A stretch of DNA of 64,000 bases from Asanoa sp. WMMD1127. GTDB taxonomy: Bacteria > Actinomycetota > Actinomycetes > Mycobacteriales > Micromonosporaceae. Under the pieces are notes generated by a model. The model did no database searches and was not told the DNA's origin. It saw nothing but the letters and a program-made list of their open reading frames with translations. Numbering within the stretch: position 1 is the first letter of the stretch; every line of letters begins with the position of its first letter. Made by a program: the position numbers and the translations under genes. The DNA is taken from the NCBI RefSeq assembly GCF_029626225.1, contig NZ_JARUBP010000001.1, positions 5,084,001 through 5,148,000 of the forward strand, given 5' to 3'. Positions 48,856 to 64,000 of the stretch are shown here, one piece after another.

Positions 48856-51378
48856 TCAAAGGCCCAGATGTTCCGCCAGGTCCGCCGCGTCCGGTGTGTC
48901 GAGCGCCCGGTAGAGGTCATAAGCCTCGAGTAGCAGCTGTCTGGCACCCGGATCCCCGGCTCGCTCAGCCTCGTGGCCGAGGGCCAACAGCGCCCGGGCC
49001 CGGAACGCCGGGACCCGCTTCTCGGTCCAGTACGTCAGCGAGCGCCTGAGCCGCTCGACTCCACGCCGATCGCCCCGCGCCAGCTCGACCTCGCCCAGTG
49101 TCAGATCCGTCAACGCCAAGCCCCAGGCGCTTCCCCGCTCGTCGAACACGGCCGCCGCTTCCGACAGCGTCTCCTGGGCCTCGGCCGACCTCGTGGGTTC
49201 GCCCGCGAGTGATTCTCCGAGGATCCGCAAGCTCTGTGCCGAACGGATGGGATCCCCCATGCGCGCGAACAGGCTCGCGGCCTGGCGGGCCGCGCCCTGT
49301 GCCTCCGCCGGCCGGCCGGCTGACCTGAGAGCTCCGGCCAGGCCGCGCAGGCCGTACGCGTGGGCGAAGAGGTCACGGCACCATCGAGCGACGTGCAGCG
49401 ACCTGCGCGCGGTGTCGACGGCCTCGTCATGTCTGCCCTGTTGGCGCAGGACGAAACTGAGGCTGGTCAGCGCCGTCGCTTCGGTCTGCCGCCGGCCGAC
49501 TGCCCGCAACTGCTCGACCGAGGCGCGAAGCTCGGTTTCTGCCTCGGCGAGCTGACCGGTCAAGCCGAGCATGACGCCGATGTAACTGCGGGCCATCGCC
49601 GCTCCGGCGCTGTCACCGACCGCCTCGGCGAGCGACCGCGCCGCGCGCAGGGTTTCCACCGCCGCCGGCGAATCGTCGAGCTCCACCATGCAGGCACCCA
49701 ATCCGCGAAGGATGGCCGCCTCCCGAGCCGGCTCACCCGCACGCTGGCACGCCACGAGCGCCACCCGCATGACTCGACGCCAGTCGTCGTGATGGCCCCG
49801 TGCCTCGTAGAAATCAGCGGTGGTGCCGGCGATGGCGAATGCGTTGGCCGTCAACCCGGCTTCGACACAACCGTTGACGACACCGGCGATGGCCTCGCGC
49901 TCAGCTTCGAACCACTCGACCGGCTGGTTCACGGCCCGCGCGACCACACGCGGGTCGGCGACGACCGCGGCCTGGCTTCGGTCGTCGATATAAAACCGCT
50001 CGCATCTCAGGTGGTCCTGGGCGTGGCGAGCCAACGCGAGCCATCCGGACGCGGCTCGATCCAGCGCGGTCGTCCACTCCGTGCTGTCGATCGCGCTCTC
50101 CTGCCGCTCCCGTGCGAAGATTCGCGTCAGCTGGTGAAAACCATACCGCTGCTGACCCGCCGCATCGGGGCCGAGACTGTCGAGAAGATGCGCGTCGAGC
50201 AACTCGTTGAGTACGCGGTCGCCGTCCGCTGGTGACACGTCGAGCAGAGCGGCCAGCGGCCACCCGGGAAACGTGGGCACCCGAAGGGCGCCGAGGAGCG
50301 CCAACCCGCGGGCGGCCGGTGGCGACAGCGCCTCGAAGGCGAGCTGCAGGCCAGGGCGTACCGCCAGGTCGACGTGCCGAAGCTCGTCGAGTCGGCGACG
50401 TTCGTCGGCCAGCTGTTCGCCGAGAGCCTCGATTGTCCAATGTGGCCGGGCGGCGAGTCGTGCGGCGGCGATCCGGACGGCCAACGGCAGCCCACCGCAC
50501 ATCTCGACCAGCTCGGCCGCCGCTCTTCCCTCGGCGCGCACCCGCTCGGGGCCGGCCACGCTGCCGAGGAGGGTCAGCGCCGACGGGGTGTCCAGCGGTC
50601 GCAGGTCCACGACGGTGGCTCCAGGCAGCGCGGTGAGCGGCAGGCGGCTCGTGACCAGGACAGCGCTGCCGGCGGGCGGCGCGAACGGGATCACCTGGCG
50701 ATGACCGCATGCGTCGTCCAGGACCAACAGCACTCGGCGCCCGGCCAGGCGTGCGCGAAACAGTCCGGCGCGCGCGTCGGCTCCGGCCGGCAACGCCGAT
50801 CCGTGGTCGCCGAGCGCTCGCAGCAGGTTGGCGAGCACGTCGGCGGGATCGGCCGGCCGGCCGTCGGCGTCGCGCAGTGCCGCGTAGAGCTGTCCATCCG
50901 GGAAGCGGGATGCGAGCCGATGAGCGGTGTGGACTGCCAACGCGGTCTTTCCCACGCCGGCCTGCCCACCGACGGCGACCAAGCGGGCGCCGGCAGAACC
51001 AGGGTCCAGCGTCCGGCAGATCGCCGCGATCTCATCCGCACGGGCGACGAAGTCCGGAAGGTCGGCAGGAAGGTGCCGTGGCCGGATGCCGGCCGAGCTG
51101 GCCGCGTGCGGCACGTCGCCGCTGGGATGGGACTGGCCCGGGCGATTCGCCCAAAAAAGCTGGTGCGCTGCGGCGGTGAACTCCTCCCGCGCCTCGCCGG
51201 TCAGATCCAACGCCGCCGCGAGTCGTTCGACGGTGCGTGGCCGAGGGCTGCGAGCGGGCCCGCGCTCCATGTCTCCCACGGAACGGCCACTGATACCTGC
51301 CCGCTCGGCGAGCTGCTCCTGAGTGAGCTGACGGTCGAGCCGGTGCCGCCGGAGCAGCACGGCGAACGTGTTCGTCAA
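48856..51378 (-). CDS. XRE/NB-ARC/TPR transcriptional regulator, paralogue of 22779-25319
   Basis: The product has 840 residues and aligns along its whole length with the other copy. The XRE helix-turn-helix is at about 3-65 (LTQEQLAERAGISGRSVGDM), Walker A is GGQAGVGKTAL (137-147), Walker B is RVLLVLDDACG, and TPR helices fill the second half. A TTG at 51378 is the start, supported by GGGGGAGG nine bases upstream and by alignment with the paralogue, which has only a short extra leader. It lies downstream of a drug exporter with a strong terminator between. The role is probably ATP-dependent gene control. Confidence 0.9.
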   Translation of the reverse strand: MTNTFAVLLRRHRLDRQLTQEQLAERAGISGRSVGDMERGPARSPRPRTVERLAAALDLTGEAREEFTAAAHQLFWANRPGQSHPSGDVPHAASSAGIRPRHLPADLPDFVARADEIAAICRTLDPGSAGARLVAVGGQAGVGKTALAVHTAHRLASRFPDGQLYAALRDADGRPADPADVLANLLRALGDHGSALPAGADARAGLFRARLAGRRVLLVLDDACGHRQVIPFAPPAGSAVLVTSRLPLTALPGATVVDLRPLDTPSALTLLGSVAGPERVRAEGRAAAELVEMCGGLPLAVRIAAARLAARPHWTIEALGEQLADERRRLDELRHVDLAVRPGLQLAFEALSPPAARGLALLGALRVPTFPGWPLAALLDVSPADGDRVLNELLDAHLLDSLGPDAAGQQRYGFHQLTRIFARERQESAIDSTEWTTALDRAASGWLALARHAQDHLRCERFYIDDRSQAAVVADPRVVARAVNQPVEWFEAEREAIAGVVNGCVEAGLTANAFAIAGTTADFYEARGHHDDWRRVMRVALVACQRAGEPAREAAILRGLGACMVELDDSPAAVETLRAARSLAEAVGDSAGAAMARSYIGVMLGLTGQLAEAETELRASVEQLRAVGRRQTEATALTSLSFVLRQQGRHDEAVDTARRSLHVARWCRDLFAHAYGLRGLAGALRSAGRPAEAQGAARQAASLFARMGDPIRSAQSLRILGESLAGEPTRSAEAQETLSEAAAVFDERGSAWGLALTDLTLGEVELARGDRRGVERLRRSLTYWTEKRVPAFRARALLALGHEAERAGDPGARQLLLEAYDLYRALDTPDAADLAEHLGL

Positions 51379-55183: not shown

Positions 55184-58100
55184 GTGTCCGGTCGGCATGC
55201 CCTCCTCATTGGAGTGCCCAAGTGCGACGACGCAGCTGCTTTTGCGCCGATTCCGGATCGCGTCGTCCACGACGACCTCACCCGAATGCGCGACGCGCTG
55301 CTCGAATCCCGCTATGAGCTGACCATCCTCGGCGTCACCGTCGAGGAGCGTGCCCATCAGACCAGCCTGATCGGCGAGGCGTCGAGGAACCGCTGCCTCA
55401 CGGCGATCAAGAACGTCTGCGAGGCGGCCGACCCCGGCGGCGTCGTCGTGATTTACTTCTCCGGCCACGGGATCCGGGTCGGCGACCGCGACTACTTGGT
55501 GCCCGCCGACTTCAAGCCGAGCGGCAACGCCGAGGCCGACCAGCAGGCGTTGATCTCTGTCGACGTGACGCACGCCGTCAAGGATTGCCGGGCTCGTTTG
55601 GTTGTGCTCTTCGTCGACGCCTGCCGGGACGGCGGCGAGGAGATCAAGCGGCACGGCCTCGGCCAGCCACTCAGCCAGCTCTCCGACGGTACGTTCGTGC
55701 TGGTCTCCGGGTGCGAGCCGGGCCGGACGTGCGGCTACGACCCCAACGGGGGTAGCTATTTCGCGCAGGGCCTCGCAGAGGCGATCGGCCGCCTTAACCC
55801 GGCGCGTACCTTGAAAGAGGTCATCGTGGCAGCCGGCCAGCGGCTCAACCGATACGGCCAAAAACCGACGGCCCGGGGAAGCCACGATTACTTCGTCGGA
55901 TCCGACGAAATCGTCTGCGACGGCGTCGCCACGGTCGTGGAGTGGGAAAGGGCGGCGGAACAGACCCGGCTCTGGGCGCTGATCGACGGCGCGGCGGTCG
56001 GCGACATAGCTGCGTTGAAGAAGGCCCTCGCCAACCGCGTCGCAGAGCTCGCCAAGGAGGTCGTGCGGCAGCGCGACCGGTTACGCACCGTCGTGTCGCT
56101 GGTCGACGCCTGGACTGACGACCGCTACCCGGCCCGGGTCCTCGACCGGTTGGCCGACCTACTCGGCGTCGGAGAGCAACACCCGGTTATCCTGCAGCCG
56201 GAGGAGACGTGCGCGCTGATCCTAGCCCCGTTCCTGCGCGAGTCGATTCTGGCGCTGGGCATGTACGACCTGTCCGCTATCGATCCGACCGACCTGCGCC
56301 AGACGTTCGGCACCGGGCTGCGCTACGAACTCGAATCCGTGTACGCGACTTACGACCAGCTCTGCCGGCACGTTACGCGCCTGCGTGGCGACCCGGAAAG
56401 CGAGTCCACAGTGATCATGTGGATGGTCCACCGGTGGCTCGCCGGCCGGCAGGACATCTGGAGCGCCCCGACCGCGCGAACGGGGTGGGTGCTCGCCGCT
56501 ACCGAAATCCTCGCGGTCTGCCGCCCTTACTCTGGGCAGGGCGATAAGGAGGAGATGGCCGACCTGCTGCACAGCCTCGCGCAGGGCGTGGGTAGCGCGG
56601 CCGGTGCCCGCCAACCGGACGAGCCCGAGGCCATCGGCCGCGCATGGTCGTTGCGGCGCCTTGCAATGCTCGCCGGTTTGCTCGCCATCGACCTGCGCCG
56701 GTTGAGCCGGGCCGTGCCGGACCATGTAGGGGTCCGGGATCCGGTCAGCATGGTTGACGTGCGGGAGACCGTGGCCGGCGCCCGCTGGGACGGCCCGAGT
56801 CGGCGGGACCTGAGGGCCACCTGCCGTCACCACGCAGTGCACGTGGCACTCGTCGACGCGGCCGACGAGGCGGAGAAGATCCGGCGCGACATCGCTGGTG
56901 TTCCGGGCGCCAAGGAGGACGACCTGCTGCGCCTCGCGCTCGCCACGCCGATTACCGGGGCCTCGGTCCACCCTCTGTCGACGAAGGCCGATGGTCTGGC
57001 CTATCAGGTGCCGGTGCCCCGGTTCTCCCTCGACTCCGAGCGGGTGCGAAACCTCCTGATGGGCACCCAGCTGTACGGGAACCGGTCCGTCGCGCTCCGG
57101 GAGCTCTACCAAAACGCGCTCGACGCCTGCCGGTACCGCAACGCGCGCCGCCGGGCGATGTACCGCAACGCCCCGGACTACGAGCGGTATCCCTTGCGGA
57201 TCATCTTCCGCGCTGGGGTCGAGGGCGGGATGCCCTACGTCGAGTGCGAGGACAACGGCGTCGGCATGACGGAGTACGTCATCGGCCGGGTCTTCGCCGA
57301 GGCCGGCACCCGCTTCGTTCACACCGAAGCGTTCCGGCGCGAGCAGGCCCAGTGGCGTCAGCTCCAGGGCGAGCTTCGGCTTTACCCGAACAGCCAATTC
57401 GGCATCGGGGTGTTCAGTTACTTCATGCTTGCCTCGGAGATCTCCGTCTGGACCGTCCCCACGGACGAGCACGGTGCCACCACCGGCAGCAAGTTCGAGG
57501 TGCGAATCGCTGGAAGCGGCAACCTCTTCCGGATCAAGCCCACCGACGACGTACCCACGGGCATCCTCGACGGGGGCACGGTGGTCCGCTTGCACTTGGC
57601 GGCCGACGACTCGATTTCGCTCGAGGCGACCCTCCGCCAGCACCTGGTGCTGCCCGAGTTCCCCGTCCATGTCCGGGAAGGCGATCGGGACGTGGTACTG
57701 GCGGCCGACATGCTGCACCTCGACGGCGCGCACGATCCGCTGAAGGTGGAACGCAACCTGTGGTGGGTGTCAGGCCCCGGTGCCCTCCTCGCCGACGGCA
57801 TCAAGGTCAGGAAGCAAACTGATCCTTTGTCGTCTGCGCCGTTCGGGTATGTGCTCGACATGACCGGCCCGCACCGCCCCACCCTGAGCGTCGATCGCGC
57901 ATTGGCGCTGGAGTGGGACCAGCAATGGGCCAGCGACTCGTTGCGGAACGCGATCCCCGCACTCGACCGGTGGGACGGTCTCACCCTGGAGTGGCTCTGG
58001 CAGCTCGCCGCGTCCGAGCCGGAGTTGGCCGACGAAGTGGTCCGGTGGCTCGGAGACCGGCGCATCCCCTATGACGCGCATCTGCGAGGCCTGCTCGTCG

Positions 58101-59944
58101 CCGTGTCGGAGGTCGGTTGCTTCCCCGGCGACGGAGAGCTGTCGCCGAACCGGCCGTGGTATCGGGAGAGCCGCGACCTGGCCCGGTGGCTGAAGCCGTG
58201 GCGGAGCCGAATTTGGGGAGAACTCTTCGGAATGACGGTCGACGAACTTGCCCCAGAGCGGCTTGACGGGTATCCGACGATCCAACCTTCGGATTACAAA
58301 TGGCTGGCAGCGGTGTACGGATACCGCGCCGCCGCGCGAGTTTTTCGGAGGGCTCAAGGCGGAGCCATCGAGGAAGTGAATCGTCAGCTTCAGCAGCTCC
58401 GGCGGTTCGTCATCGCGGGGATGGACATCCGGCCACCGGGCCTCACATCGGTGGAGTTGGAGATGTTGACGAGCGGCAGCCGAAACTCGGCGCCTATGCT
58501 GGACGACGGCCGGCTCGTCCCGGCGTTCCAGGAAGCAGCGCTGACCGGCCTGAGCGTCGGCCAAATCTGGCGGGAGTGGTGGCCCCGCGACGATGTTCCG
58601 GCGCAGGCCAGCGACTACGTGCCGTCGAAGGTGGACATGCTACTTCTGACGGACCCTAGCGGACACTCGTTGCGAGCGCTCAAGAAGTGGGTCGAGGACG
58701 GGTCGGCGTCGCCGCAAGAGATCGCCGAGGCCGCTCGGAGTCTGCGCAGGTTCGGTTCTTGGACTCTGGTGCCGTCCGGCTGGGACGGCACCGTGCCTGA
58801 TGTCCAAAGCGCGGTAGGAAGGCTCGTCGCCGAGGCGTCGCGCCCGCTGTCAGTCCTCGATCTTGCCGCAGTGGCGGGCGCCGAGGGGCGTTCGGTCGGC
58901 GAGGTTGCAATCGAGGTCGAAGATCTGCTCGTCCGACTTGGCACCGAATCGGCAGCGCCTGACGTCGACGCCTTCGATGATTTCAGGCCAAACGATCTCG
59001 AATTGCGATTGATCGAGCGCGTTCGCAATGCACGCGGTTTCGTCGAGACGTTGGCCGGATTGCTGTCCGTCGCGCTCGATGACGTCGGCGACCCTGAGCT
59101 GTTGGTCACCGCGATCGGGCGGATAGCTCCCGTCCTGGGGTTGTCTGGTGAGGTGACCACGGCGGATCTGGTTGCCGTGACGGCACAAGGCACAAATACA
59201 TTGGGCGCGATACGCGACTGTCTGGAAAGCTACTTCGCCGGCTGTCTCGACCTCACCTGGATCAACAATCTGCCGCCTGATCTCGGGCGGCGGACGCCTC
59301 AATACGATCAGGCCCAACTGCTCCTCGTTAATGTCGACGGTCGCCCCCGCTGGCAGGCGCCTACGCCGAAGGCGTTGGTAGTAGCGGCGGTCCACCAACG
59401 CCGCTTGCCGTCTATCAATGGCCTTCTGGAACGCCTCGCCCTGTACAAGGAGATCGGCGCCATCCTCCCGGCCGTCGAGGTGCCCGACGATCTCAAGATT
59501 GACGGCCGCGACGCGGTGATCCTTGCCGAGGACCTGATCACCAGCGAGATTTTCCCGGTCAATGCGGCCTTGAACGATCGGGCAATACCCAACAACCTGG
59601 TGACGCCGCTCCACCTCGTCCGGTCCGCCGGCCGGTTCGGCTGGACGCTTGAGGAGACCTACGACCGATTCGTTCGCTTCGCGCCGCTCGGACTTCGGAT
59701 GGCGATGTCGAGGAATGCCTGCACAGCGGACGTCGTCCGGTGGCAGGACCTGATCGTGCTGAGTGTTGGACACGACGGGTGGCCGCCCGCCTTGCCGCCT
59801 GGTCCAATCACCACCGAGACGGTGCGTGCGGCCGCCAATGCCATCGGCACCGACTCCGCCTTCGTCGTGGGCCGGCTCCGCCACTACGCCACGTTGTTCG
59901 GCTTCGACCTGTCCGCCCTGGAGGACGACCATGACGACTCCTGA
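55184..59944 (+). CDS. Caspase-like protease fused to an HSP90-type ATPase
   Basis: The product has 1586 residues. Residues 1 to about 240 are a caspase-fold (C14) protease with H95 in VVVIYFSGHGIR and C147 in FVDACRDGG. A helical region (about 260-600) resembles the HD-derived domain found before HSP90-like ATPases in conflict proteins. A GHKL ATPase follows: N-box RELYQNALDACRYR (about 637-650), ECEDNGVGMTEY (about 686-697) and NSQFGIGVFSYFMLA (about 735-749). The last about 650 residues are helical, with winged-helix-like units. The GTG at 55184 has AGGTGAT upstream. A likely logic is ATP-dependent sensing that activates the protease. The two downstream genes overlap it. Confidence 0.88.
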   Translation: MSGRHALLIGVPKCDDAAAFAPIPDRVVHDDLTRMRDALLESRYELTILGVTVEERAHQTSLIGEASRNRCLTAIKNVCEAADPGGVVVIYFSGHGIRVGDRDYLVPADFKPSGNAEADQQALISVDVTHAVKDCRARLVVLFVDACRDGGEEIKRHGLGQPLSQLSDGTFVLVSGCEPGRTCGYDPNGGSYFAQGLAEAIGRLNPARTLKEVIVAAGQRLNRYGQKPTARGSHDYFVGSDEIVCDGVATVVEWERAAEQTRLWALIDGAAVGDIAALKKALANRVAELAKEVVRQRDRLRTVVSLVDAWTDDRYPARVLDRLADLLGVGEQHPVILQPEETCALILAPFLRESILALGMYDLSAIDPTDLRQTFGTGLRYELESVYATYDQLCRHVTRLRGDPESESTVIMWMVHRWLAGRQDIWSAPTARTGWVLAATEILAVCRPYSGQGDKEEMADLLHSLAQGVGSAAGARQPDEPEAIGRAWSLRRLAMLAGLLAIDLRRLSRAVPDHVGVRDPVSMVDVRETVAGARWDGPSRRDLRATCRHHAVHVALVDAADEAEKIRRDIAGVPGAKEDDLLRLALATPITGASVHPLSTKADGLAYQVPVPRFSLDSERVRNLLMGTQLYGNRSVALRELYQNALDACRYRNARRRAMYRNAPDYERYPLRIIFRAGVEGGMPYVECEDNGVGMTEYVIGRVFAEAGTRFVHTEAFRREQAQWRQLQGELRLYPNSQFGIGVFSYFMLASEISVWTVPTDEHGATTGSKFEVRIAGSGNLFRIKPTDDVPTGILDGGTVVRLHLAADDSISLEATLRQHLVLPEFPVHVREGDRDVVLAADMLHLDGAHDPLKVERNLWWVSGPGALLADGIKVRKQTDPLSSAPFGYVLDMTGPHRPTLSVDRALALEWDQQWASDSLRNAIPALDRWDGLTLEWLWQLAASEPELADEVVRWLGDRRIPYDAHLRGLLVAVSEVGCFPGDGELSPNRPWYRESRDLARWLKPWRSRIWGELFGMTVDELAPERLDGYPTIQPSDYKWLAAVYGYRAAARVFRRAQGGAIEEVNRQLQQLRRFVIAGMDIRPPGLTSVELEMLTSGSRNSAPMLDDGRLVPAFQEAALTGLSVGQIWREWWPRDDVPAQASDYVPSKVDMLLLTDPSGHSLRALKKWVEDGSASPQEIAEAARSLRRFGSWTLVPSGWDGTVPDVQSAVGRLVAEASRPLSVLDLAAVAGAEGRSVGEVAIEVEDLLVRLGTESAAPDVDAFDDFRPNDLELRLIERVRNARGFVETLAGLLSVALDDVGDPELLVTAIGRIAPVLGLSGEVTTADLVAVTAQGTNTLGAIRDCLESYFAGCLDLTWINNLPPDLGRRTPQYDQAQLLLVNVDGRPRWQAPTPKALVVAAVHQRRLPSINGLLERLALYKEIGAILPAVEVPDDLKIDGRDAVILAEDLITSEIFPVNAALNDRAIPNNLVTPLHLVRSAGRFGWTLEETYDRFVRFAPLGLRMAMSRNACTADVVRWQDLIVLSVGHDGWPPALPPGPITTETVRAAANAIGTDSAFVVGRLRHYATLFGFDLSALEDDHDDS

Positions 59945-60239
59945 CCACGACGAGAAGACCCCGTTTCGCGAGCTCTCCGTCACCTTCGCGGGGTCCGTCG
60001 AGGTTCTCAGCCGGACTTCGGACCAGATCCGGGTGCGGATGCGCTGCCCCGCCTGTCGCGGCTCCACGGAGGACGACATCGTCTATGGCGTAGCGGGCAC
60101 TAAGGGCGGTACGACGACCCTGCCTCTGAGCGGTGAGCAGCCGTTCATCTGCGCCTGCGGCTATCCACACGATGGCCGGCCGCCGGAGGCGCTCGACACC
60201 GGCTGCGGCGCCTACTGGTCCGCCACGGTGCCGTCGTGA
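59931..60239 (+). CDS. Small cysteine-rich protein in the caspase/HSP90 operon
   Basis: The product has 102 residues with six cysteines, including RCPAC and FICACGYPHDG, then DTGCGAYW. The spacing resembles a zinc ribbon or treble-clef knuckle, though not one that I can name. The N-terminal half is a predicted beta-rich segment (LSVTFAGSVEVLSRTSDQIR). Its ATG lies 14 bases inside the end of the protease/ATPase gene and its TGA overlaps the GTG of the next gene, so all three are translated together. It may be a partner or substrate of the protease; function unknown. Confidence 0.75.
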   Translation: MTTPDHDEKTPFRELSVTFAGSVEVLSRTSDQIRVRMRCPACRGSTEDDIVYGVAGTKGGTTTLPLSGEQPFICACGYPHDGRPPEALDTGCGAYWSATVPS

Positions 60240-60838
60240 ACCTCGATGACAAGCGTTGGGAACAGCTCGCTCAGCAGGCCAAGTGGCGCCAGCTGGAGGT
60301 CGCGCGTAAGCAGGCCGAGGGTTGGCGGACCGCCCTCATCGGCCTGACGGCGCTCCTCGCGGTGATCACGATCGTCAAGGGCCCGGCGGACCTGGCCGCG
60401 TTGAGTGACACCGCCCGATTGGCCGTGCTGGTCACCTTGGCGCTGGGGTTTATTGCTCTGGTCGCCGGCTCGCTAACCGCGGTCCGGGGAAGTAGCGGCC
60501 GGCCCGAGAACATTCCGCTGAAGGGTCCCGCGTTGAAGGCGTGGACGAACGACGAGGTCAAAGCGATCGGCCGAATGATCAAGTGGACGGCCGGCCTGCT
60601 GGTGGCCGGTGTCGCGCTCGTCGCCATCGCGACGGGAGTCACCTGGGTAGCGGGCGGCAACGCCCCAGGCACCGCCGTCAAGGTCGTCACTACCAACGCC
60701 GAGGCGTGCGGAGAGATCATCTCGATCGATGCCCGCCAGCTGGTGCTCGACACCGACCCTGGCCCAGACCGGAACCGTCTTGTACTTGACACGCGCAGCC
60801 TGGTCAGCGCCACCCCGGGCAGCTGTCAGCCGAAATAG
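60236..60838 (+). CDS. Three-helix membrane protein in the caspase/HSP90 operon
   Basis: The product has 200 residues: a charged N-terminal helix (RWEQLAQQAKWRQLEVARKQ), then three membrane segments (TALIGLTALLAVITIV, ARLAVLVTLALGFIALVAGS, TAGLLVAGVALVAIATGVTW) and an outside C-terminal domain of about 55 residues with two cysteines. A GTGA overlap joins it to the preceding gene. No pore family is recognisable. In protease-based death systems a membrane protein in the operon is often the effector released by cleavage, so this is a candidate substrate of the caspase. That is inference. Its 3' end overlaps the convergent WXG100 gene by 13 bases. Confidence 0.75.
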   Translation: MNLDDKRWEQLAQQAKWRQLEVARKQAEGWRTALIGLTALLAVITIVKGPADLAALSDTARLAVLVTLALGFIALVAGSLTAVRGSSGRPENIPLKGPALKAWTNDEVKAIGRMIKWTAGLLVAGVALVAIATGVTWVAGGNAPGTAVKVVTTNAEACGEIISIDARQLVLDTDPGPDRNRLVLDTRSLVSATPGSCQPK

Positions 60839-61107
60839 CCGCGGGTGTCCTCCTCAACCCGCGCGATGCGGTCGCGAACCTCGGCCACGGCGTCGGTCAG
60901 CTGGCGCAGTGTGGCGGTGAGGTCGTCGGCCGCCGATTCCCAGCGCGCGCGGGTGGCGTCGAATTGGTCGCGCGCGATTCCGTCCCAGGCGATCCGGTCG
61001 AGGTTGGTACGCAGCCGGTCGAGGCGGTCCTGCACTGCCCGTGCCGCGTCCCTGAGATCCGCTTCGAGCTGGGCCAGCTGGCCGAGATCGGCACGGAAGT
61101 CTGTCAT
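60826..61107 (-). CDS. WXG100 family protein (EsxA/EsxB-like), second of the pair
   Basis: The product has 93 residues, predicted as a helical hairpin with the turn motif W-D-G in RIAWDGIARDQFD. Length, helical pattern and absence of a signal peptide are those of WXG100 proteins secreted as dimers by type VII (ESX) systems. Its ATG overlaps the stop of the preceding WXG100 gene (ATGA), which supports a heterodimer. No clear C-terminal YxxxD/E secretion motif is seen, although EEDTRGYFG ends the chain. Confidence 0.88.
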   Translation of the reverse strand: MTDFRADLGQLAQLEADLRDAARAVQDRLDRLRTNLDRIAWDGIARDQFDATRARWESAADDLTATLRQLTDAVAEVRDRIARVEEDTRGYFG

Positions 61108-61433
61108 AGCGGCCCGCGCCGGTCGAGGCTACGGGCGATCCGGTCGAAGCTCTCCCGCGCCGTGGTGTCGGCCGCGACGTAGTTGGCATCCATGCGGCGC
61201 AGCAACCCGGCCATCGTATCAAGCTCGCCTATGAGCCTCGTGTAATCGGCGTGGAGCAACCTGATAGCTTCCTCGAACGCCGCGGCGCCGGCGCCGTGCC
61301 ATCCGTCCGTGACGGCGTCGACCGATGCCCGCACCCGCATCAACTGGTGCTCCAGGTCGGAGCGCGCCGCCTCGACCTCCGCGGCCGCACTACGCAACGC
61401 CTCCGCGTCAGCGTCAGCGTCGAAGCTCCCCAT
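61104..61433 (-). CDS. WXG100 family protein, first of the pair
   Basis: The product has 109 residues, with a helical hairpin and W-H-G turn in VTDGWHGAGAAAFEEAI. It follows the EccC gene by 17 bases and is coupled to the second WXG100 gene by ATGA. The pair is expected to form the secreted heterodimer recognised by the last ATPase domain of EccC. The C-terminal region (ANYVAADTTARESFDRIARS) contains a YxxxD arrangement that could be the secretion signal. Confidence 0.88.
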   Translation of the reverse strand: MGSFDADADAEALRSAAAEVEAARSDLEHQLMRVRASVDAVTDGWHGAGAAAFEEAIRLLHADYTRLIGELDTMAGLLRRMDANYVAADTTARESFDRIARSLDRRGPL

Positions 61434-61450
61434 TGCCCACCTCGACCGGC

Positions 61451-64000
61451 TCAGGATTCATCCGGTTCCGTCAAGGCTACCCCGGGGTCCGCCATTGCTG
61501 TCTGCACAAGTCGGTCCGCTTCCCGCCGGCGAACCAGCCAGCCCCTGCCCGGGGGTAACCGGTCGAATCTGCGGTTGCCGAGCATGGGACCCTCCTCCGG
61601 GCGGCCGGACATCAGCAGGGTGGGCGTGTCGACCTCAACCATGGTCTGTAGGAGGCGCTCGTACAGCGCCCGCGACGTGCCGGCCGCTCGGCGCGCGACG
61701 ATCAGATGGAGGCCGATGTCGACGGCCTGCGGCACTAGCGGCGCAAGCGGCGCAAGCGGATTGGTGGCGCCGCTGCTTACCAGGTCATAGTCGTCGACGA
61801 CCACGAACAACTCCGGCCCGTGCCACCAACTACGGTTACGGACCTGGTCAGGCGTGATGTCCGGGCCTGGCAAGCGGCCCTTTATCGCTTCATTCACGAA
61901 GGAGACGATCTCGGTGGCGACGCTCGCAGACGGGGCGTAAGCGAGCAGGTGCTCGCCAGAGACCGCGTCGAGCAGGCCGCGGCGGTAATCGATGATCACC
62001 AGGCGGACCTGTGCCGGCGGATAGCGGTTTACGAGCGACTGGACGACGAGCCGGAGGAGGTTGGTCTTGCCGCTCTCGCCGTCGCCGAACACGAGCAGGT
62101 GTGGATCCTGGACGAAGTCGAGGACGACCGGCTCGTGTCGATAGACGTCAAGCCCAACCGGCAGACCACGCGAGTCGTTGGCGGCCAAGGCGACCAACGC
62201 GGCTGCGGTCAGGCGGGCCGGCATCGGGTCGAGGCGGGGCGCGGGCGGTCCTGGCCAGGCGTTGGCGATCGTCTTCACCAGGTCACGAGTCGCCTCCGCG
62301 CTCGGCGCACCGACCAGGTCGCCGCCCTGTGCTACCGCCGCCAAGAAATGGGCGCCGCCGCTAGCCAGGCCCCGACCCGGCGTCGCCGGCACGTCCCGCG
62401 CGACGCGGCGGTTGATCTCCGAGTCGACCGGATCACCCAATCGCAGCTCAAGTCGGGAACCGAAGAAGTCACGTATGCCGGCGCGCAGCTCGACCCAACG
62501 GTTGGCGGTGACGAGAACGTGCACGCCGAAGCCGAGGCCGCCGCGAGCAATGCCGGTGACAGCGGCTTCGAGGTCGTCGAAATCTTTGCACAGAGTGCCC
62601 CACCCGTCGATGACCAGGAAGATGTCACCGCTGTCGCCGGTGTGTCGTCGGCGGTAGGTCTCGATCGAGTCGATGCCCTCCGCGGCGAATGAAGCCTCCC
62701 GGCGCTCCAGCACGTTCTTCACGTGTGCGACGACGCGCCGAACCTGGTCGGGGTCGCGCCGGTCGACCACGCACGACACATGTGGCAGCTCCGCGAGCGC
62801 GGAGAGCCCGCTACCACCGAAGTCGAGGCAGTAGAACCGCGCTTCGCGTGGCGTGTGGGTCAAAGCGAGTGCCGCGACCAAGGTGCGCGTCAGCGTGCTC
62901 TTGCCCGACCGTGCCGTGCCGACCACCGCGGCATTGCCGGTGGCACCGGCCAGATCCACGAGCAGCGGCTCGCGCCGTTGTTCGAACGGCAGGTCGACAA
63001 TGCCAACCGGAACCTGGAACCGGCCGTTGCCGGGCCAGGCGGGCGCGTGCAGGCCGCGTTCGGCGTCGGCGTGCAACGGTGGTAGCAGCTGGGTAAGGGT
63101 GGGCGGCGTCGACAAGGGTGGAAGCCAGATTTGGTGGGCATGCGAGCCCTGCCCGGCCACGCGTGCGCCGATCGCCTCGAGCAGCGATGGCCGGAGGTCG
63201 TCCGGGGTCGGCGTCAGGTCGGCCGGCCCCGAAGCTTCCAGGAGCGGTCGCCGGCCGACGACCACGAATCCGTCGACCTCGGCTGGCAATGCAACGGCCG
63301 CGCGGGAAGTGCGGCGCGGGGGATAGGGGCCGGAGACGTAAGCGGCCCGGAATCGACGCAGCGGCTCGGTGCCATAGCGGAGATAGCCGTGGCCTGGCGC
63401 GCTGGGCAGCTCGTATGCGTCGGGCACACCCAGCACCATGCGGCTCTCGGCAGCAGAAAATGTGCGTAGGCCGATGCGGTAGGAGAGGTGGGTGTCGAGC
63501 CCGCGCAGCCGACCCTCTTCTAGACGCTGGCTGGCGAGCAGCAGGTGAACGCCCAGTGACCGGCCCACTCGGCCGATTTGCACGAACGTTTCGATGAAGT
63601 CGGGTTTGGCGGAGAGCAGCTCGCTGAACTCGTCGACGATAATCAGCAGCGACGGAAGCGGCGGGAGTGCCTCGCCGGCCCGGCGGGCCATTTCGTAGTC
63701 GCGCTGGCTGACGTAGTTGCCGCTGGCCCGCAGCAGTTCTTGGCGCCGCAGCAGCTCGCCGCCGAGTGCCTGCTGCATACGCTCGACGAGCCCGAGGTCC
63801 TCCGCGAGGTTGGTGATCACCGCGCTGGTGTGTGGCAGCTGGTCGAGCGACGTGAACGTCGCACCGCCCTTGAAGTCGACGAGCACTAGGTTGAGGTCGG
63901 CCGGCGAGTGCCGCAGGACGAGACTGGCGACGATCGTCCGCAGCAGCTCGCTCTTCCCCGACCCGGTGGCGCCGACAAGCAGACCGTGAGGGCCATGGCC
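61451..64000 (-). CDS. eccC: EccC-type FtsK/SpoIIIE ATPase of a type VII secretion system (partial, 5' end off the window)
   Basis: The last 849 codons are present and the frame stays open to the right edge. Three FtsK/SpoIIIE ATPase domains are visible. The first has Walker A GATGSGKSE at the window edge and Walker B LLIIVDEFSEL. The second has Walker A GTARSGKSTL and Walker B-like DIFLVIDGWG. The third has Walker A DGESGKTNLL and Walker B LFVVVDDYDL. This is the EccC motor that binds WXG100 substrates and drives their export; the N-terminal membrane part lies beyond the window. The two WXG100 genes directly downstream are its likely cargo. The locus is convergent with the caspase/HSP90 operon. 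Confidence 0.93.
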   Translation of the reverse strand, partial: GHGPHGLLVGATGSGKSELLRTIVASLVLRHSPADLNLVLVDFKGGATFTSLDQLPHTSAVITNLAEDLGLVERMQQALGGELLRRQELLRASGNYVSQRDYEMARRAGEALPPLPSLLIIVDEFSELLSAKPDFIETFVQIGRVGRSLGVHLLLASQRLEEGRLRGLDTHLSYRIGLRTFSAAESRMVLGVPDAYELPSAPGHGYLRYGTEPLRRFRAAYVSGPYPPRRTSRAAVALPAEVDGFVVVGRRPLLEASGPADLTPTPDDLRPSLLEAIGARVAGQGSHAHQIWLPPLSTPPTLTQLLPPLHADAERGLHAPAWPGNGRFQVPVGIVDLPFEQRREPLLVDLAGATGNAAVVGTARSGKSTLTRTLVAALALTHTPREARFYCLDFGGSGLSALAELPHVSCVVDRRDPDQVRRVVAHVKNVLERREASFAAEGIDSIETYRRRHTGDSGDIFLVIDGWGTLCKDFDDLEAAVTGIARGGLGFGVHVLVTANRWVELRAGIRDFFGSRLELRLGDPVDSEINRRVARDVPATPGRGLASGGAHFLAAVAQGGDLVGAPSAEATRDLVKTIANAWPGPPAPRLDPMPARLTAAALVALAANDSRGLPVGLDVYRHEPVVLDFVQDPHLLVFGDGESGKTNLLRLVVQSLVNRYPPAQVRLVIIDYRRGLLDAVSGEHLLAYAPSASVATEIVSFVNEAIKGRLPGPDITPDQVRNRSWWHGPELFVVVDDYDLVSSGATNPLAPLAPLVPQAVDIGLHLIVARRAAGTSRALYERLLQTMVEVDTPTLLMSGRPEEGPMLGNRRFDRLPPGRGWLVRRREADRLVQTAMADPGVALTEPDES

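What the first reader, a model, noticed from the sequence alone, without database searches (positions are those of the whole stretch)
55184..60838. Three-gene overlapping operon: caspase/HSP90-type fusion, cysteine-rich protein and membrane protein
The first gene joins a caspase-fold protease with intact His95/Cys147 to a GHKL ATPase with a readable N-box and DNGVGM motif, on one 1586-residue chain. Two small genes overlap it in series (14 and 4 bases), so stoichiometric production is built in. From established work on NTP-dependent conflict systems, caspase and HSP90-like modules occur in immunity or programmed-death proteins. The particular set with a cysteine-rich partner and a three-helix membrane protein is, to my knowledge, not characterised. 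A testable model is that the ATPase senses a threat, the caspase cuts the membrane protein or its partner, and the membrane is breached.
Basis: partly seen in the sequence, partly recalled or inferred. Interest (0 to 1): 0.92.

Follow-up and report, generated by a model that had tools for sequence, protein, structure and literature searches.

The report
Bacterial caspase-chaperone operon with membrane partner
A soil-type bacterium's operon joins a caspase-type protease and an HSP90-type ATPase switch in one protein, and encodes it together with a small Cys/His protein and a membrane protein; the same two small partners also sit beside a second kind of caspase-fold protease in related bacteria, which suggests an uncharacterised membrane partner shared by bacterial caspases.

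Summary
Gene 1 (1586 aa) carries a caspase (H95/C147), iHD-CE, an HSP90-type GHKL ATPase and a C-terminal wHTH. Gene 2 is a 102-aa Cys/His protein. Gene 3 has three transmembrane helices plus a predicted small barrel. Overlaps are 14 and 4 bases.

In 63 named actinobacterial loci found by gene 3, 55 have the intact three-gene order, 62 have gene 2 before gene 3, and 58 of 62 keep the 4-base overlap. Active-site and ATPase residues are kept in 69 of 69 gene-1 homologues.

Partners go with the caspase: no gene-1 protein beside genes 2-3 lacks it, and caspase-HSP90 proteins without genes 2-3 carry an upstream Pepco-like gene in 12 of 16 loci.

Without gene 1, genes 2-3 often sit beside a CHAT protease, another caspase-fold family: 9 of 20 Streptomyces loci and 10 of 14 loci of the window's family, against 0 of 32 controls.

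Best reading: genes 2-3 are a shared membrane output (or anchor/sensor) of actinobacterial caspase-fold proteases. Phage defence, cleavage and membrane damage are inferred, not shown.

The parts
55184..59944 (+). gene 1: caspase - iHD-CE - HSP90-type GHKL ATPase - wHTH protein, 1586 aa, GTG start
55184..55903 (+). caspase domain (residues 1-240; Pfam Peptidase_C14 30-229); H95 codon 55466-55468, C147 codon 55622-55624
   Evidence: both residues kept in 69 of 69 rows
55943..56908 (+). iHD-CE domain (residues 254-575)
   Evidence: PF24401 E 2.4e-51
56996..58018 (+). HSP90-type GHKL ATPase domain (about residues 605-945); N-box 57101-57115, DNGVGM 57251-57268
   Evidence: NCBIfam; PDB HtpG N-domain E 2.4e-7; motifs
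59732..59905 (+). wHTH-HSP90_Na-assoc stretch (residues 1517-1574)
   Evidence: PF24410 E 5.2e-10
59931..60239 (+). gene 2: 102-aa all-beta Cys/His protein, C39-P-x-C42 ... C74-x-C76-x3-H80 ... G91-C92-G93
60236..60838 (+). gene 3: membrane protein, 200 aa, TM about residues 32-50, 62-80, 118-138
60674..60817 (+). C-terminal small five-strand barrel of gene 3 (residues 147-194), with conserved Cys 158 and 197 (197 lies just after it); extracytoplasmic side is inferred from the positive-inside rule
   Evidence: model; Sm/Hfq-like; Cys invariant in 14 rows

Best explanation
This is a three-gene actinobacterial caspase system of the conflict or regulated-death type. Gene 1 is a single-chain switch: the HSP90-type ATPase with iHD-CE and wHTH parts holds the caspase inactive until a trigger is met. 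Genes 2 and 3 are a dedicated membrane module on which caspase-fold proteases act. Gene 3 is anchored by three transmembrane helices with a basic N-terminal cytoplasmic helix, and gene 2 is its cytoplasmic Cys/His partner. On activation the caspase cuts or releases gene 2 or gene 3, which changes the membrane and stops or kills the cell. Shown: domain make-up, conserved residues, conserved gene order and overlap, and sharing of the 2-3 pair with CHAT proteases. Inferred: trigger, cleavage, membrane damage, antiviral role.
For: Intact 1-2-3 order in 55 of 63 named loci; gene 2 directly before gene 3 in 62 of 63; 4-base overlap in 58 of 62 (14 of these 63 loci are the same as loci of the earlier set). 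Caspase and GHKL residues kept in 69 of 69. Genes 2-3 go with the caspase: of the gene-1 proteins in gene-3 loci, 0 of 34, 0 of 6 and 0 of 63 lack it (three sets, the first and third overlapping). Without gene 1 the neighbour is often a CHAT protease: 9 of 20 Streptomyces loci, 10 of 14 loci of the window's family, 0 of 32 controls above 60 bits (Fisher p 1e-7 together, 2e-7 for the family alone). 18 of these 19 CHAT frames lie within 600 bases of the gene-3 domain and 19 of 19 keep His and Cys. The rest of the protease chain differs (HSP90/iHD-CE/wHTH against CHAT proteins of 433-1334 aa) while 2-3 stay, as expected of a shared output. The barrel is absent in 13 gene-3 homologues of 131-151 aa, so outside sensing is not needed everywhere. 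One locus has 2 and 3 in one frame (L161). Tandem gene-1 copies occur. Presence is patchy: gene 3 in 2 of 6 genomes of the own genus, the second one of the CHAT type.
Against: No experiment. No match of gene 2 or 3 to a known pore former or toxin family. Gene 3 could equally be an anchor or sensor. Sixteen caspase-iHD-CE-HSP90 genes occur without genes 2-3. Ten of 20 gene-1-less Streptomyces loci have neither a CHAT hit nor gene 1 (one, L092, keeps a C-terminal remnant of gene 1; L162 is counted as CHAT by Pfam). One clade member lacks 2-3 (L142). The neighbours scanned in the window include no defence gene known to me, and the link to phage is by analogy.
Confidence: 0.5

Rival explanations
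1. Genes 2-3 are the sensor or anchor, not the output: gene 3 places the protease at the membrane or reports an envelope event such as phage DNA entry, and the caspase acts on other proteins in the cell.
For: In EACC1 systems, a described caspase system, the authors propose the TM protein as membrane sensor for the caspase (PMC7159879, passages read). Most gene-3 proteins carry a barrel with conserved Cys, predicted outside. Gene order is constant and overlapping.
Against: The barrel is missing in 13 homologues; seven of these loci have a gene 1, all with His and Cys kept. Two protease classes with different remaining parts share 2-3.
Confidence: 0.3
2. Genes 2-3 restrain the protease (immunity or antitoxin role), holding gene 1 or CHAT at the membrane until a trigger frees it.
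For: Tight overlap and constant presence fit an inhibitor as well as an effector. Pepco-like small proteins stand in their place in other lineages, as a swapped regulator could.
Against: Genes 2-3 persist without a protease hit beside them in ten Streptomyces loci, and gene 1 of L142 lacks them with its domains still scoring high.
Confidence: 0.1
3. A non-conflict role: regulated proteolysis in envelope or developmental control of filamentous actinobacteria.
For: Neighbours scanned in the window are an ESX-type cluster, a regulator and an oxidase-like gene, no phage gene (the rest of the window was not scanned). The hosts are developmentally complex (general knowledge).
Against: Patchy presence in close relatives, tandem copies, a relative overlapping an AAA_5 (McrB-like) gene on a plasmid.
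Confidence: 0.1

Closest known systems
Caspase + iHD-CE + HSP90 + wHTH proteins (Pfam PF00656, PF24401, PF24410), many with Pepco (PF24393) upstream
   Same: Same domain order in gene 1.
   Different: Twelve of 16 read here without genes 2-3 have a Pepco-like gene upstream; the 35 with genes 2-3 have none (Pfam checked in four of the twelve).
EACC1-caspase two-gene conflict system (PMC7159879, passages)
   Same: Actinobacterial caspase with a small membrane partner; the caspase model matches at 52 bits.
   Different: Score far under the 140-bit cut-off; EACC1 has one TM helix and is the 5' gene; the word Hsp90 does not occur in that text.
TPR-CHAT proteases, e.g. Craspase (PMC9729208, abstract start in a search listing)
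   Same: Caspase-fold protease; CHAT proteins neighbour the same 2-3 pair.
   Different: CRISPR genes were not looked for; gene 1 has a C14 caspase plus HSP90, not CHAT.
Bacterial gasdermins (recalled, no call)
   Same: By recall, a membrane effector encoded next to caspase-like and other proteases.
   Different: Gene 3 is predicted as three TM helices plus a small barrel; no direct comparison was made.
MscS-type channels
   Same: Three TM helices then a small beta domain; 7onl is at Foldseek rank 20, E 0.038, prob 0.38.
   Different: No sequence match, weak fold match, predicted orientation opposite (MscS orientation recalled).

Membership tests
Caspase-iHD-CE-HSP90 proteins | C14 caspase, iHD-CE and wHTH-HSP90_Na-assoc domains above cut-off on one chain | tested here: met
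Caspase-iHD-CE-HSP90 proteins | HSP90-type GHKL motifs intact | tested here: met
   NCBIfam HSP90 models match below equivalog cut-off
Pepco-linked caspase-HSP90 systems | upstream Pepco-like partner | tested here: not met
   no hit near the window gene with an HMM of eight such proteins
EACC1-caspase system | caspase above NCBIfam EACC1-type cut-off (140 bits) | tested here: not met
   52 bits
EACC1-caspase system | 5' gene with EACC1 domain | not tested
   the upstream stretch was not searched with an EACC1 model
SLATT effectors | SLATT profile above cut-off, or profile-profile match | tested here: not met
   no hit for the window protein, weak hits in 6 of 54 homologues (best E 0.0015); hhalign of 54 gene-3 rows against 27 SLATT rows 1.2% probability (1.3% with one out-of-frame row included)
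MscS-type channels | fold match over TM helices and beta domain | tested here: inconclusive
Bacterial gasdermins | gasdermin fold | not tested
   no gasdermin row in PADLOC for the window proteins or among the 25 Pfam families shown of 28, but no direct comparison
Zinc ribbon proteins (gene 2) | Cys/His pairs placed to bind a metal, ribbon fold | tested here: inconclusive
   C-P-x-C, C-x-C, His and C conserved; all-beta model; no clear fold match; zinc-type Pfam rows only in 1-2 of 48 members
Phage-defence system (function) | protection against phage | not testable with these tools
   needs plaque assays

The most novel reading that the evidence does not exclude
Genes 2-3 are an undescribed membrane output that actinobacteria plug into two different caspase-fold protease classes (C14-HSP90 and CHAT). 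This would be a gasdermin-like logic with an unrelated membrane protein, switched by an HSP90 ATPase on the same chain as the caspase.
Probability: 0.35. Interest if true: 0.9.

Novelty: new variant of a known kind. Interest (0 to 1): 0.72.

Why it matters
How bacterial caspases kill or signal is known for only a few systems (general knowledge). A two-gene membrane module that stays constant while the protease class and the rest of its chain change is a direct, testable candidate for a common endpoint. Gene 3 has matches in 65 of 392 genomes of one genus, Streptomyces by shared loci with named records, and in 52 of 280 genomes of the window's family. An HSP90 ATPase fused to the caspase would also test whether a chaperone-type clamp can set the trigger threshold of a death protease.

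Tried and rejected
Rejected: a SLATT identity for gene 3. Rejected: that the three genes are a chance arrangement. Set aside: gene 3 as a potassium channel (KcsA rows are E 0.16 or worse); gene 2 as phage base-plate V (E 0.087, below cut-off).

Limits: 54 of 72 gene-3 places were read, mostly from the top, and 20 places. The 63 named loci are not independent of these: 14 carry an identical gene 3. Of the 32 controls, 27 were chosen as iHD-CE places without a gene-3 hit, so absence of genes 2-3 in them is by selection; absence of CHAT and presence of Pepco are not. The nine neighbours given to Pfam were picked because their ends looked like CHAT. The CHAT model was built from eight of those loci, so the loci of the window's family are the independent test. 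The Fisher table printed (19/16 against 1/31) did not match the counts beside it; the mended test is. In one search the class 'gene 1 present' for L152 rests on a broken gene 1. L296 has only a weak CHAT hit far from gene 3 and was not counted. In L290 gene 1 lies on the other strand from genes 2-3. CHAT distances use stop-to-stop frames and may be somewhat short. Gene 2 was missed by its HMM in several loci and seen by a Cys/His pattern instead (strict in eight of 11 loci tried, loose in L162, none in L296 and L243; the strict pattern occurs in 37 of 3260 random stretches of the held loci). The name Streptomyces for the G737 genus follows from loci shared with named records; that the window's family is Micromonosporaceae is my guess from the named hits.

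Full report
OBSERVATION. Gene 1 contains Peptidase_C14 (30-229), iHD-CE (254-575, E 2.4e-51), an HSP90-type ATPase (625-811 against HtpG-type models) and wHTH-HSP90_Na-assoc (1517-1574). The ATPase stretch finds HtpG and eukaryotic HSP90 N-domains in the PDB (best E 2.4e-7). The caspase stretch finds no PDB chain by phmmer. The window is in a 7.97-Mb genome of three contigs. In the window, genes 2 and 3 match no family above cut-off in Pfam or NCBIfam.

CONSERVED UNIT. A first distant relative, G737, has the same three genes at 33%, 40% and 43% identity, overlapping by 4 and 4 bases. A profile of gene 3 finds 65 of 392 genomes of that genus (72 places). A scan of named genomes returned 63 loci, most in Streptomyces, others in Micromonospora, Actinomadura, Acrocarpospora, Kitasatospora and Streptacidiphilus. 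14 of the 63 have a gene 3 identical to one of the earlier loci. Of the 63, 55 have intact 1-2-3. Four have gene 1 downstream, shortened or in pieces (L202, L204, L221, L236). Four have none: L203 and L232 sit at the edge of their contig, L220 corresponds to L092, which keeps only a C-terminal remnant of gene 1, and L243 also lacks gene 2. 62 of 63 have gene 2 and 58 of those 62 the 4-base overlap; among the 55, genes 1 and 2 overlap by 4 bases in 23 and by 8 in 16. The nearest by gene 3 is Micromonospora qiuiae (52%). The caspase His and Cys, the N-box E and N, and the D and G positions of the ATPase motifs are kept in 69 of 69 rows (13 identical to rows) and in the 31 rows that hold these parts.

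PARTNERS FOLLOW THE CASPASE. The iHD-CE family occurs in 61 of 392 genomes of that genus. Of 70 gene-1 places read, 35 have caspase and genes 2-3, 12 have caspase and a Pepco-like gene upstream, four have caspase and neither (L051, L133, L142, L155), 18 have no caspase and neither, and one (L152, broken gene 1) has genes 2-3. None has both partners. Most places without genes 2-3 were chosen for lacking a gene-3 hit, so the unselected form is this: of gene-1 proteins in gene-3 loci, 0 of 34, 0 of 6 and 0 of 63 lack the caspase. The small upstream protein was given to Pfam from four of the 12 loci and matches Pepco above cut-off in all four. In a tree of 68 rows the gene-2-3 rows need two changes, that is one group with one loss (L142), against 22.9 in shuffles. 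The window row has a long branch, so its exact place is unsure.

SECOND PROTEASE CLASS. In loci with genes 2-3 but no gene 1, I gave Pfam nine neighbours whose ends looked like CHAT; all nine match CHAT above cut-off, and TPR passes its cut-off in one of them, L162. A CHAT profile built from eight of them was then run on all loci. At over 60 bits it finds 9 of 20 gene-1-less Streptomyces loci (L162 is a tenth by Pfam), 10 of 14 gene-1-less loci from the window's family, 0 of 40 gene-1-bearing gene-3 loci, and 0 of 32 control loci; one control and one family locus have a weak hit. Fisher p is 1e-7 for both sets and 2e-7 for the family loci alone. 18 of the 19 CHAT frames lie within 600 bases of the gene-3 domain, eight on the same strand and ten on the other; the nineteenth (L158) is 4.5 kb away. 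His and Cys are kept in 19 of 19. Ten gene-1-less Streptomyces loci show neither protease, among them three beside an EF-G-like gene. L115 and L116 share a convergent 487-aa downstream gene, 90% identical, with gene-1-bearing L106, so gene 1 may have been lost there.

DISTRIBUTION NEAR THE WINDOW. In the window's family 52 of 280 genomes have a gene-3 match; in the own genus 2 of 6, and the second (L291) is of the CHAT type. An iHD-CE search of 397 genomes of the order matched 7 at E 0.001, 6 over the cut-off.

OTHER RELATIVES. An Azospirillum plasmid relative (28% identity) has a caspase-iHD-CE-HSP90 gene overlapping by 4 bases an AAA_5 gene that reads like McrB, with an McrC-like ORF after it (the McrB and McrC names are my reading).

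MECHANISM. Most likely, gene 1 is a clamp-type switch and genes 2-3 the membrane module on which caspase-fold proteases act. The argument for output over sensor is that the rest of the protease chain changes while genes 2-3 stay, and that the barrel is dispensable in one subgroup. It is not conclusive: the EACC1 authors propose a membrane partner as sensor (passages of PMC7159879). Trigger, substrate, membrane effect and antiviral role are not shown by any search.

LITERATURE. Read in part: PMC7159879 (outline with abstract, and passages), PMC8195603 (passages), PMC11090510 (passages), PMC12137116 (passages; there a GHKL ATPase fused to a nuclease needs both activities for phage defence). Others were seen in search listings only. 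The source paper of iHD-CE and Pepco was not found, so parts of this architecture may be described elsewhere.

VERDICT. A conserved system of a known general kind (caspase conflict-type proteins) with an uncharacterised two-gene membrane module shared with a second caspase-fold class.

Noticed in passing
L048 8258-9484 (own genome, caspase match at C1 343290-343901): A second caspase-domain protein of about 408 aa in the same genome, followed by a YCII-domain gene.
   Followed up: partly
L051 8941-17241 (Azospirillum brasilense plasmid): Caspase-iHD-CE-HSP90 gene overlapping by 4 bases an AAA_5 (McrB-like) gene, then an McrC-like ORF: the architecture outside Actinomycetota, tied to a restriction-type operon.
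   Followed up: partly
L084, L201, L217, L227, L235: Two gene-1 copies in one locus around genes 2-3, i.e. tandem operons.
   Followed up: no
L161 3248-4204: Gene-2 and gene-3 matches lie in one open frame, apparently a natural fusion.
   Followed up: partly
L112, L114, L118: A gene 2-3 pair downstream of an EF-G-like gene (my reading of its sequence), with no protease hit beside it.
   Followed up: no
L052 8046-10113 (Streptomyces collinus plasmid pSCO1): A sigma-factor-like gene overlapping a short 518-aa protein with the same HSP90-type ATPase domain and no caspase hit.
   Followed up: no
window 60826-64000: Two WXG100 genes and an FtsK/SpoIIIE-type ATPase on the minus strand; the first WXG100 gene ends 13 bases inside the 3' end of gene 3.
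   Followed up: partly
window 48856-51378: HTH + NB-ARC + TPR regulator of 840 aa on the minus strand.
   Followed up: no
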